The notes under the pieces: model-generated
What the model saw: the letters and a program-made list of their open reading frames with translations, nothing else
Databases searched by the model: none
Told to the model about the DNA's origin: nothing
Assembly: GCA_946482375.1 (NCBI GenBank)
Contig: CAMLRH010000124.1
Span: 1-7,710 of the forward strand
Reading direction: 5' to 3'
DNA length: 7,710 bases
Source: an uncultured Caulobacteraceae bacterium
GTDB taxonomy: Bacteria; Pseudomonadota; Alphaproteobacteria; Caulobacterales; Caulobacteraceae
Part shown: in pieces, positions 2,325-3,775 of the stretch
Layout of the letters: each line of letters opens with the position of its first letter
Numbering within the stretch: position 1 is the first letter of the stretch
Made by a program: the position numbers and the translations under genes

Positions 2325-3775
2325 GCGTGGAAGTCCTGATGCCCGCCCTCTCGCCGACCATGGAGGAGGGGACCCTCGCCAAGTGGCACGTGAAGGAAGG
2401 CGACGAGGTCAAGGCCGGCGACGTCATCGCCGAGATCGAGACCGACAAGGCGACCATGGAGGTCGAGGCCGTCGACGAAGGCGTGGTCGAGGCCATCCTC
2501 GTCCCCGAGGGCTCGGAGGGGGTTAAGGTCAACACCCCGATCGCCCGGCTGAACGGGGAAGGGCCCCCTCAGTCGGCTTCGCCGACAGCTCCCCCTGAGG
2601 GGGAGCATCCACCGGCCCAAGATCCTCCCCCTCAGGGGGAGGTGGCGCGAAGCGCCGGAGGGGGCGGGGAGGCAGCCGGTGACCCCGAGAAACAGCCGCC
2701 CGAAGAGGCCAGAAAGCAGCCCGAAGGCGAAGGCCCAGCGCCGATCACCCCAAAACAGCCACTGGCCGACCCGGAAATCCCCGCTGGCATCCAGATGGTC
2801 AAGATCACCGTCCGCGACGCGCTTCGCGACGCCATGGCCGAGGAGATGCGCCGCGACGAGAGCGTCTTTCTGATGGGCGAGGAGGTCGCGCAGTACCAGG
2901 GCGCCTACAAGGTCAGCCGCGAGCTCCTGCAGGAGTTTGGCGAACGCCGCGTGATCGACACCCCGATCACCGAGCACGGTTTCGCCGGTCTGGGCGTCGG
3001 CGCGGCCATGGCCGGTTTGAAGCCCATCGTCGAGTTCATGACCTGGAACTTCGCCATGCAGGCGATCGACCAGATCATCAATTCGGCGGCCAAGACGCTC
3101 TACATGTCGGGCGGCCAGATCCGCTCGTCGATCGTCTTCCGGGGCCCCAACGGCGCCGCGGCCCGGGTGGCGGCCCAGCACAGCCAGGACTATTCCCCCT
3201 GGTACGCCCACGTGCCGGGGTTGAAGGTCGTGGCCCCCTATGACGCCGCCGACGCCAAGGGCCTGCTAAAGGCCGCCATCCGCGACCCCAACCCCGTCGT
3301 CTTCCTCGAGCACGAGATGCTCTACGGCGTCGAGTTCGAGATACCGCAGGTCGACGACTGGGTCCTGCCCATCGGCAAGGCCAAGGTCCGCCGGGAGGGG
3401 GACGGCGTCACGCTGACCGCCCACTCCCGCATGGTCGGCCTGGCGCTGAAGGCCGCCGAGGAATTGGCCAAGGAAGGCATCGAGGCCGAGGTCATCGACC
3501 TGCGCACCCTGCGCCCGCTCGACCACGCGACCATCGTCGAGAGCGTCAAGAAGACCAACCGCTTGGTCTCCTGCGAGGAAGGTTGGGGCCCGATGGGCGT
3601 CGGCGCCGAGGTCGTGGCGCGGGTGATCGAACACGCCTTCGACTATCTGGACGCCCCGCCGCTGCGGGTCTGCCAGGAGGATGTGCCGCTGCCCTACGCC
3701 GCCAACCTCGAGGCCTTGTCTCTTCCGTCCGTCGAGAAGATCGTGAAAGCCGCCAAGGAGGTCAGCTACCGATGA
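2321..3775 (+). CDS. pdhB: Pyruvate dehydrogenase E1 component, beta subunit, with N-terminal lipoyl domain
   Basis: This is the beta subunit of E1, fused to a lipoyl domain as in several alphaproteobacteria. Residues 1-77 are a lipoyl domain with the acceptor Lys43 in ETDKATME. Residues 78-140 are a Pro/Ala/Gly/Gln-rich linker, of which 82-115 are encoded by a palindromic repeat (2563-2665). From about 145 onward is the E1-beta fold: GEE at 186-188, DTPITEHGFAG with Glu218 (the expected thiamine-activating Glu) and AAQHSQDYSPWY with His287, then the C-terminal transketolase domain ending near YR. At 484 residues it is longer than plain E1-beta (about 330) because of the lipoyl domain and linker. 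GTG 2321 is preceded by GGAGGG six bases away and overlaps the pdhA stop. Its lipoyl DNA is nearly identical to that of pdhC. The 3' end holds a perfect AAGGAGGT that serves a downstream start. Confidence 0.97.
   Translation: MSVEVLMPALSPTMEEGTLAKWHVKEGDEVKAGDVIAEIETDKATMEVEAVDEGVVEAILVPEGSEGVKVNTPIARLNGEGPPQSASPTAPPEGEHPPAQDPPPQGEVARSAGGGGEAAGDPEKQPPEEARKQPEGEGPAPITPKQPLADPEIPAGIQMVKITVRDALRDAMAEEMRRDESVFLMGEEVAQYQGAYKVSRELLQEFGERRVIDTPITEHGFAGLGVGAAMAGLKPIVEFMTWNFAMQAIDQIINSAAKTLYMSGGQIRSSIVFRGPNGAAARVAAQHSQDYSPWYAHVPGLKVVAPYDAADAKGLLKAAIRDPNPVVFLEHEMLYGVEFEIPQVDDWVLPIGKAKVRREGDGVTLTAHSRMVGLALKAAEELAKEGIEAEVIDLRTLRPLDHATIVESVKKTNRLVSCEEGWGPMGVGAEVVARVIEHAFDYLDAPPLRVCQEDVPLPYAANLEALSLPSVEKIVKAAKEVSYR
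2357..2475 (+). repeat. 119-bp perfect direct repeat, copy 1 (lipoyl domain of pdhB)
   Basis: These 119 bases are identical, synonymous sites included, to 4316-4434 in pdhC. Both copies begin on a codon boundary and cover most of the lipoyl domain, including the lipoylated Lys codon. Similarity continues with scattered third-position changes into the linker. The copies are 1959 bases apart (653 codons, in phase). Confidence 0.95.
2563..2665 (+). repeat. In-frame palindromic repeat element, copy 1 (pdhB linker)
   Basis: This is a 103-bp element bounded by GCCCCCTC (2563-2570) and its reverse complement GAGGGGGC (2658-2665). Inside are four hairpins: GTCGGC-TTC-GCCGAC (2572-2586), GCTCCCCC-TGA-GGGGGAGC (2588-2606), CCTCCCCC-TCA-GGGGGAGG (2624-2642) and GGCGC-GAA-GCGCC (2644-2656). 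The left and right halves are imperfect inverted copies of each other around a short spacer (about 2607-2623), so the whole could fold as one large cruciform. It carries no stop codon in the pdhB frame and encodes residues 82-115. A related copy is in pdhC at 4525-4636. It resembles dispersed non-coding palindromic repeats of alphaproteobacterial genomes, but copy number elsewhere cannot be seen here. Confidence 0.88.
3755..3762 (+). promoter_or_regulatory. Perfect Shine-Dalgarno (AAGGAGGT) inside the 3' end of pdhB
   Basis: AAGGAGGT matches the anti-Shine-Dalgarno exactly and lies nine bases before ATG 3772, which overlaps the pdhB stop as ATGA. It is the strongest ribosome site in the window, yet the next recognisable gene starts only at 3894. 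It therefore points to the short ORF 3772-3894, or to a former start of the next operon gene. Confidence 0.7.

What the first reader, a model, noticed from the sequence alone, without database searches (positions are those of the whole stretch)
2563..2665. Multi-hairpin palindromic repeat domesticated as protein linker in pdhB
A 103-bp element with 8-base inverted ends, four internal hairpins and mirror-image halves lies inside the E1-beta gene, exactly between the lipoyl domain and the catalytic domain. It is in frame, stop-free and encodes a Pro/Gly/Ala/Gln-rich peptide (PPQSASPTAPPEGE ... DPPPQGEVARSAGGG) suited to a flexible swinging arm. This is comparable in principle to the Rickettsia palindromic elements that insert in frame into genes, but here an intergenic-style repeat appears to supply an interdomain linker of a central metabolic complex.
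Basis: partly seen in the sequence, partly recalled or inferred. Interest (0 to 1): 0.72.

Follow-up and report, generated by a model that had tools for sequence, protein, structure and literature searches.

The report
Intergenic repeat recycled as enzyme linker
A short self-complementary DNA repeat that in related bacteria sits mostly between genes is read in frame here as the flexible tether of a central metabolic enzyme, and similar events appear many times in related bacteria.

Summary
The 103-bp element at 2563-2665 is real: an inverted pair of a ~45-nt two-hairpin unit (fold z -7.3). The host genome is not held. In relatives the element is multi-copy (13 of 15 and 4 of 4 genomes) and mostly outside genes. 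The closest PdhB relatives have other linkers there.

It is wider than the finding. Of 173 distinct pdh loci, 36 have a repeat-like PdhB and/or PdhC linker (4 by fold alone), from at least two distinct repeat groups; the tree needs at least 26 changes. BkdB shows it at 18 of 30 loci, one weakly. At 40 SucB loci no exemplar hits the gene. For three of five exemplars the retained frame is nearly always the hydrophilic Pro/Gly/Ser-rich one.

Best reading: REP-like elements entered in frame, were kept where they encode an acceptable linker, and passed between pdhB and pdhC by gene conversion. In-frame repeats are known (RPE, REPs); the recurrent swinging-arm target is the new part. Translation and benefit are unproven.

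The parts
2321..3775 (+). pdhB, pyruvate dehydrogenase E1 beta with N-terminal lipoyl domain
   Evidence: ORF; Pfam lipoyl aa 4-77 and transketolase domains; NCBIfam NF008854 E1 beta, 805.6 bits
2563..2665 (+). 103-bp REP-like inverted dimer lying in frame in the PdhB linker (residues 82-115)
   Evidence: multi-copy in relatives
2563..2607 (+). unit A of the dimer; hairpins 2572-2586 and 2588-2606
2621..2665 (-). unit B of the dimer, inverted relative to unit A; hairpins 2624-2642 and 2644-2656; these 45 nt are identical to 4592-4636
4283..5611 (+). pdhC, dihydrolipoamide acetyltransferase (E2)
   Evidence: ORF; Pfam; TIGR01349, 514 bits
4525..4636 (+). second copy of the element, in frame in the PdhC linker between the lipoyl and E3-binding domains
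   Evidence: 97 of 112 aligned columns identical to the pdhB copy
2357..2475 (+). 119 nt of lipoyl-coding DNA in pdhB that are identical to 4316-4434 in pdhC (possible gene-conversion tract)
4316..4434 (+). 119 nt of lipoyl-coding DNA in pdhC that are identical to 2357-2475 in pdhB

Best explanation
The element belongs to a multi-copy REP-like (BIME-like) repeat family found in Caulobacteraceae: an inverted pair of a ~45-nt unit, each unit with two hairpins. A copy entered the linker-coding stretch of pdhB or pdhC in frame, and the partner gene probably received its copy by gene conversion between the paralogous lipoyl-linker stretches. The peptide it encodes (rich in Pro, Gly, Ala, Ser, Gln, Glu, almost without hydrophobic residues) serves as part of the flexible arm that carries the lipoyl domain, which is possible because such linkers are constrained in composition and hardly in sequence. 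Shown by computation: the repeat family, its mostly intergenic place in sampled relatives, in-frame placement in two linkers here, repeated placement in PdhB, PdhC and BkdB linkers elsewhere, the bias of the retained frame, and the co-occurrence in pdhB and pdhC. Inferred: the insertion event, gene conversion, translation, and that selection on the peptide chooses the frame. Unknown: the mobilising enzyme and any benefit.
For: Multi-copy in 13 of 15 and 4 of 4 related genomes. Of 74 classified copies away from contig ends in four genomes, 4 are in frame inside ORFs. All 47 neighbouring unit pairs are inverted; covarying cells 35 against 9.7 in shuffles. Linkers: 33 of 343 with z<-3 against codon shuffles, controls 4 of 339; 45 of 343 hit by exemplar elements, controls 0 of 339. 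36 of 173 loci, at least 26 changes on the tree. Frame: 13 of 16, 6 of 7 and 7 of 7 for three exemplars. PdhB and PdhC co-occur: 13 both, 3 B only, 16 C only, 129 neither, p 6e-9. In 3 of 3 genomes checked by position, the genomic copy most like the pdhB-linker repeat is the one in the pdhC linker. Review passage: linkers vary in sequence and length but keep composition (PMC7448341).
Against: The host genome is not held, so copy number there is unknown beyond two in this window. No transposase was linked to it: Y1_Tnp in 1 of 10 genomes. Frame bias is weak for two of five exemplars (4 of 9 and 4 of 6), and rows include near relatives and the exemplars themselves. SucB linkers of like composition are not hit, so general tolerance of linkers does not explain the pattern. 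The AlphaFold model was too poor (mean pLDDT 44) to support or refute a disordered linker. Within-genome B-C lipoyl identity is not higher where both linkers carry repeats (p 0.25). Only 21 of 161 loci have B closer to their own C than to every other B.
Confidence: 0.75

Rival explanations
1. Neutral tolerance: selfish repeats land everywhere, and linkers merely survive them. The repeat adds nothing and will erode.
For: In-frame copies also occur in MurF and RsmE and near the C-terminus of an unidentified ORF. Turnover in linkers is fast. PMC3733652 (section 15) reports REPs in many unrelated genes.
Against: SucB genes of the sample are not hit at 40 loci although their linkers are alike in composition, while BkdB is positive at 18 of 30. 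For three exemplars one frame is kept although three (win, L008, L117) are also open in other frames. Both facts are also compatible with filtered neutrality, so this rival stays strong.
Confidence: 0.45
2. The element acts as DNA or RNA, for example on mRNA stability or polarity in the pdh operon, and the coding role is incidental.
For: Very stable predicted fold on both strands; stems covary across copies; REPs are proposed to act on RNA (PMC3733652 passages).
Against: Presence is patchy between close relatives, and in three families the frame is biased towards one peptide type. Covariation is found in copies generally, so it says nothing specific about this copy.
Confidence: 0.12
3. Chance palindrome produced by Pro/Gly-rich codons.
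For: The peptide is low in complexity; a few Ala/Pro linkers without repeat matches also reach z<-3 (2 of 40 SucB loci; L068).
Against: Codon shuffles, multi-copy relatives outside genes and an ordinary linker with no copies in 7 other genomes and one weak extra match in its own.
Confidence: 0.01
4. Assembly chimera joined through a repeat.
For: The window protein is known from one contig (P0001, 1 contig of 9231 bases), and the element is a repeat.
Against: Frame and domain order are intact on both sides in both genes, and a named isolate on a 1.17-Mb contig has repeat-like linkers in both genes (L022).
Confidence: 0.03

Closest known systems
Rickettsia palindromic elements (RPE)
   Same: Palindromic repeats of ~100-150 bp with open frames fused in frame to protein genes (passages of PMC2229807, and PMC10969869)
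   Different: Other sequence and host; in the passages read, the targets are unrelated genes and no linker preference is stated
REPs inside genes, including CGTC REPs of Alphaproteobacteria (PMC3733652)
   Same: Small palindromic units often in head-to-head pairs, mostly intergenic, some inside ORFs, no dedicated transposase for CGTC repeats (passages; section 15)
   Different: The terminal CGTC tag is absent from the 38 aligned units, and the paper's stressed target class is DNA synthesis and repair. Its list of intragenic REPs (Additional file 3) could not be read
ERIC/RU elements of enterobacteria
   Same: Small mobile repeats carrying open frames and found fused in frame (abstract start of PMC2759123; passages of PMC2229807)
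   Different: Other sequence and other hosts
[quoted passage not shown]
   Same: ~110 bp, abundant in Caulobacter and relatives, two arms joined by a linker (passages of PMC2229807)
   Different: CIR carries GANTC and is described as intergenic with stops in all six frames; here GANTC is in 0 of 134 units and 4 of 6 frames are open

Membership tests
BIME-like REP dimer (general kind) | Palindromic units in alternating orientation | tested here: met
   134 units; 47 of 47 neighbouring pairs within 60 bp are inverted
BIME-like REP dimer (general kind) | Multi-copy and mostly intergenic | tested here: met
   4 of 74 classified copies in frame inside ORFs. Tested in relatives, not in the host
GTAG REP with RAYT | Associated RAYT (Y1) transposase | tested here: not met
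   PF01797 in 1 of 10 genomes; the same search rings in 5 of 14 control genomes, among them Caulobacter vibrioides. Whether the one match (L206) is flanked by units was not examined
CGTC REP | Terminal CGTC tag | tested here: not met
   0 of 38 aligned units
CIR | GANTC motif | tested here: not met
   0 of 134 units
CIR | Strictly intergenic, stops in all frames | tested here: not met
   4 of 6 frames open; copies in pdhB and pdhC here
Rickettsia palindromic element | In-frame insertion into protein genes | tested here: met
   Two genes here; MurF and RsmE of relatives. This is 'works like', not membership
Rickettsia palindromic element | Sequence homology to RPE families | not tested
   No RPE sequence was fetched or compared
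MITE | Terminal inverted repeats | tested here: met
   8-bp perfect inverted ends
MITE | Target-site duplication and a parent transposon | not tested
   No empty site at DNA level was available; only PF01797 was sought

The most novel reading that the evidence does not exclude
Swinging-arm linkers of the pyruvate (PdhB, PdhC) and branched-chain (BkdB) complexes of Alphaproteobacteria are an evolutionary sink in which selfish palindromes of at least two distinct sequence groups are again and again recycled as working protein linkers. Filtering by reading frame turns non-coding repeats into functional disordered protein, gene conversion passes it between pdhB and pdhC, and SucB of the TCA cycle stays closed to it.
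Probability: 0.42. Interest if true: 0.75.

Novelty: new variant of a known kind. Interest (0 to 1): 0.6.

Why it matters
In-frame palindromes are usually described as tolerated parasites spread over unrelated genes. Here one functional class of protein segment is hit repeatedly, by repeats of more than one sequence group, and for the best-sampled ones mostly in the frame that gives a linker-like peptide. This is a natural replicated experiment on how non-coding repeats become protein and on how little sequence a swinging arm needs. The contrast between BkdB or PdhC and SucB is directly testable. It also warns that such linkers differ between close species and can mislead alignments.

Tried and rejected
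Rejected: chance palindrome from Pro/Gly codons (codon shuffles); CIR membership; RAYT-driven REP; spread on plasmids or phages (no match at E 1e-5); repeats as seeds of conversion between the lipoyl stretches (p 0.25). Rfam at gathering thresholds: no family in the window.

Led nowhere: the AlphaFold model of PdhB was poor (mean pLDDT 44.2) and no fold search was made. The Chen and Shapiro CIR paper is not held. In the listings of searches I saw no title or abstract start describing repeats in lipoyl linkers; several searches listed only part of the papers found, and the library is open-licence only. One apparent intragenic copy (L309) has an in-frame stop and was taken as intergenic.

Caveats: the five exemplars are not five independent families; win, L022 and L008 resemble each other (E 2e-9 and 1e-5), L012 only weakly resembles L008 (E 0.003), L117 stands apart. 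Of the 36 positive loci, 32 are supported by similarity to an exemplar and 4 (L068, L070, L128, L153) by fold alone; L068 may be false. The loci L001-L080 are the 80 best matches to a query that itself contains the repeat linker (21 of 78 distinct loci positive; the rest with the window, 15 of 95). The 30 BkdB loci are the best-scoring from 149 genomes, ranked against a BkdB with repeat linkers; L336 is positive only by a weak hit (8e-5). Frame counts include near relatives, two loci of one genome (L008, L124) and the exemplars themselves. Match counts in genomes can count one palindromic place on both strands. The 74 classified copies were picked by me from listed matches, avoiding most contig ends. 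The tree is FastTree only. The names BkdB and SucB rest on sequence motifs recalled by me, with Pfam support for one BkdB (L227).

Full report
1. The element occupies 2563-2665, with perfect 8-nt inverted ends, two hairpins in each half and near-mirror halves. Its predicted fold lies far below dinucleotide shuffles on both strands (z -7.3 and -7.0). It is in frame in pdhB between the lipoyl domain (aa 4-77) and the catalytic part (from aa 161). Codon shuffles that keep the linker peptide leave z -3.9, so the amino acids alone do not explain the palindrome.

2. A second copy was missed. The E2 gene pdhC (4283-5611) carries the same dimer at 4525-4636, between its lipoyl and E3-binding domains. 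Over the element 97 of 112 aligned columns are identical and the last 45 nt are identical. The lipoyl-coding stretches share 119 identical nt (2357-2475 and 4316-4434), while the 87 nt between block and element agree at 72 of 87.

3. What the element is. The host genome is not held. The element matches in 13 of 15 and 4 of 4 related genomes, usually many times; two of the 15 (G006, G013) had none. In fetched loci I extracted 134 units: all 47 neighbouring pairs within 60 bp are inverted (23 one way, 24 the other), most often 22 nt apart, and none has GANTC. On 38 aligned units the two stems pair in 97.3% of cells; cells changed on both sides number 35 against 9.7 in shuffles (0 of 500 as high), but the number of pairs with such a change (4) is not unusual (140 of 500). 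No plasmid or phage record matched. A Y1 transposase was found in 1 of 10 genomes.

4. Where copies lie. From listed matches in four genomes (G039, G052, G007, G015) I fetched neighbourhoods; 74 copies away from contig ends were classified and 14 near ends dropped. The pdh linker copies of these genomes were not in this sample. The script called two copies intragenic, of which one (L309) contains an in-frame stop and is intergenic. Inspection of three uninterrupted borderline cases added three, so 4 of 74 are in frame inside an ORF: the linker between two lipoyl domains of a BkdB-type E2 (L227), MurF (L210), RsmE (L282), and near the C-terminus of an ORF without Pfam match (L226). In MurF the best stretches of the top model and of TIGR01143 end at residues 326-327, where the element begins. 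In RsmE the best model spans residues 3-283 over 241 model positions, and the second model's best stretch ends at 176, where the element begins. So the repeat is mostly intergenic, and in-frame copies occur at low frequency even in folded enzymes.

5. The pattern in pdhB and pdhC is recurrent. From the genome-collection loci and further Caulobacteraceae loci I extracted 343 PdhB and PdhC linkers. By fold against codon shuffles, 33 of 343 have z<-3 (23 of 187, 10 of 156) against 4 of 339 control segments (2 of 185, 2 of 154). By similarity, 45 of 343 are hit by five exemplar elements against 0 of 339 controls. The exemplars other than the window's have many matches in their own genomes: L008 83, L117 67, L022 44, L012 26. 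An ordinary Ala/Pro linker matched itself and one weak place in its own genome and nothing in seven others. Over 173 distinct loci, PdhB is positive in 20, PdhC in 29 of 161, either in 36; 32 of the 36 have exemplar support and 4 rest on the fold. On a FastTree of the catalytic domain the label 'either' needs at least 26 changes, 13 of them forced by well-supported branches; shuffled labels need 33. There is thus some clustering and very fast turnover. Gains and losses cannot be told apart.

6. How many repeat groups. The window element, L022 and L008 resemble each other (E 2e-9 and 1e-5), L012 resembles L008 only weakly (E 0.003), and L117 stands apart. I count at least two distinct groups, probably three.

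7. Close relatives. P0002 and P0003 (88% identical) have acidic and Lys-rich linkers. P0004, P0005, P0008 and P0011 (84-86%) have peptides that resemble the L117 group at the same place. By protein motif alone, 22 of 120 close homologues look repeat-derived; this is a rough count by recalled or chosen motifs, not a DNA test.

8. Reading frame. The window element is open in 4 of 6 frames. The frame used (+1) has 91% Pro/Gly/Ala/Ser/Thr/Gln/Glu/Asn/Asp and 3% hydrophobic residues; the other open frames have 42%, 41% and 76% of the former. Of 16 linkers assigned to this exemplar 13 use +1. For L117, 7 of 7 use +2; for L008, 6 of 7 use +1; for L022 (4 of 9) and L012 (4 of 6) the bias is weak. Rows include relatives and the exemplars themselves. 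I read this as selection against hydrophobic or Arg-rich peptides. It fits a review passage that these linkers are not conserved in sequence and length but keep a high Ala/Pro/Ser content (PMC7448341, passages).

9. pdhB and pdhC share. Of 161 loci with both linkers read, 13 are positive in both, 3 in B only, 16 in C only, 129 in neither (p 6e-9). In the three genomes checked by position, the copy most like the pdhB-linker repeat is the pdhC-linker repeat (86%, 91%, 79%). Lipoyl DNA of B and C agrees more within a genome (mean 0.816) than B with B between genomes (0.742), as concerted evolution would give; yet only in 21 of 161 loci is B closer to its own C than to every other B, in the window it is not (0.883 against 0.913), and conversion is not stronger where both linkers carry repeats (p 0.25). 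Gene conversion is likely but inferred.

10. Other lipoyl enzymes. Of the 30 best BkdB loci from 149 genomes 18 are positive, one (L336) weakly. In ten repeat-carrying genomes, chosen for that, the exemplars hit 7 of 8 ORFs labelled PdhC, 2 of 5 labelled BkdB and 0 of 11 labelled SucB. At 40 further SucB loci no exemplar hits the gene; the one hit in these loci (L370) lies at the locus end, outside it; 2 loci have a linker with z<-3 without exemplar match, and at 2 loci no linker was parsed. In 16 genomes present in both samples BkdB is positive in 10, plus one weakly, and SucB is hit in none, with one linker at z -3.5 (L357). Tolerance of disorder alone does not explain which linkers take repeats.

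11. Relation to the literature. In-frame palindromes are established for Rickettsia and enterobacteria (passages of PMC2229807 and PMC10969869; abstract start of PMC2759123), and REPs inside genes for many species, with many in DNA synthesis and repair genes (PMC3733652, passages and section 15). CIR repeats are described as intergenic (PMC2229807 and PMC10969869, passages). In the listings of searches I saw no report of repeats as swinging-arm linkers. The library is open-licence only, and Additional file 3 of PMC3733652 was not readable here, so single cases may already be tabulated.

12. Verdict. A linker was there before, and a REP-like dimer partly replaced or extended it. Comparable events recur in related enzymes. 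Whether this is domestication or frame-filtered tolerance is open.

Noticed in passing
window 3784-3882: A second, different repeat between pdhB and the next gene: two inverted copies of a hairpin with core CCCGCGAAAGCGGG. It resembles CGTC-type REPs by eye; not tested against that family.
   Followed up: partly
window 3891-4286: A GFA-family gene (PF04828) lies between pdhB and pdhC.
   Followed up: no
L210:379-2082 (MurF, genome G039) and L282:477-1328 (RsmE, genome G007): In-frame repeat insertions inside two otherwise normal-looking enzymes, like Rickettsia palindromic elements.
   Followed up: partly
L117 (genome G184, contig C94): Three copies of one repeat within the pdh cluster: in the pdhB linker, just after pdhB, and in the pdhC linker.
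   Followed up: no
L315 / L269 (genome G052): A two-lipoyl BkdB-type E2 with repeat-like sequence in both linkers, the second linker apparently from another repeat (z -4.0 without exemplar match).
   Followed up: partly
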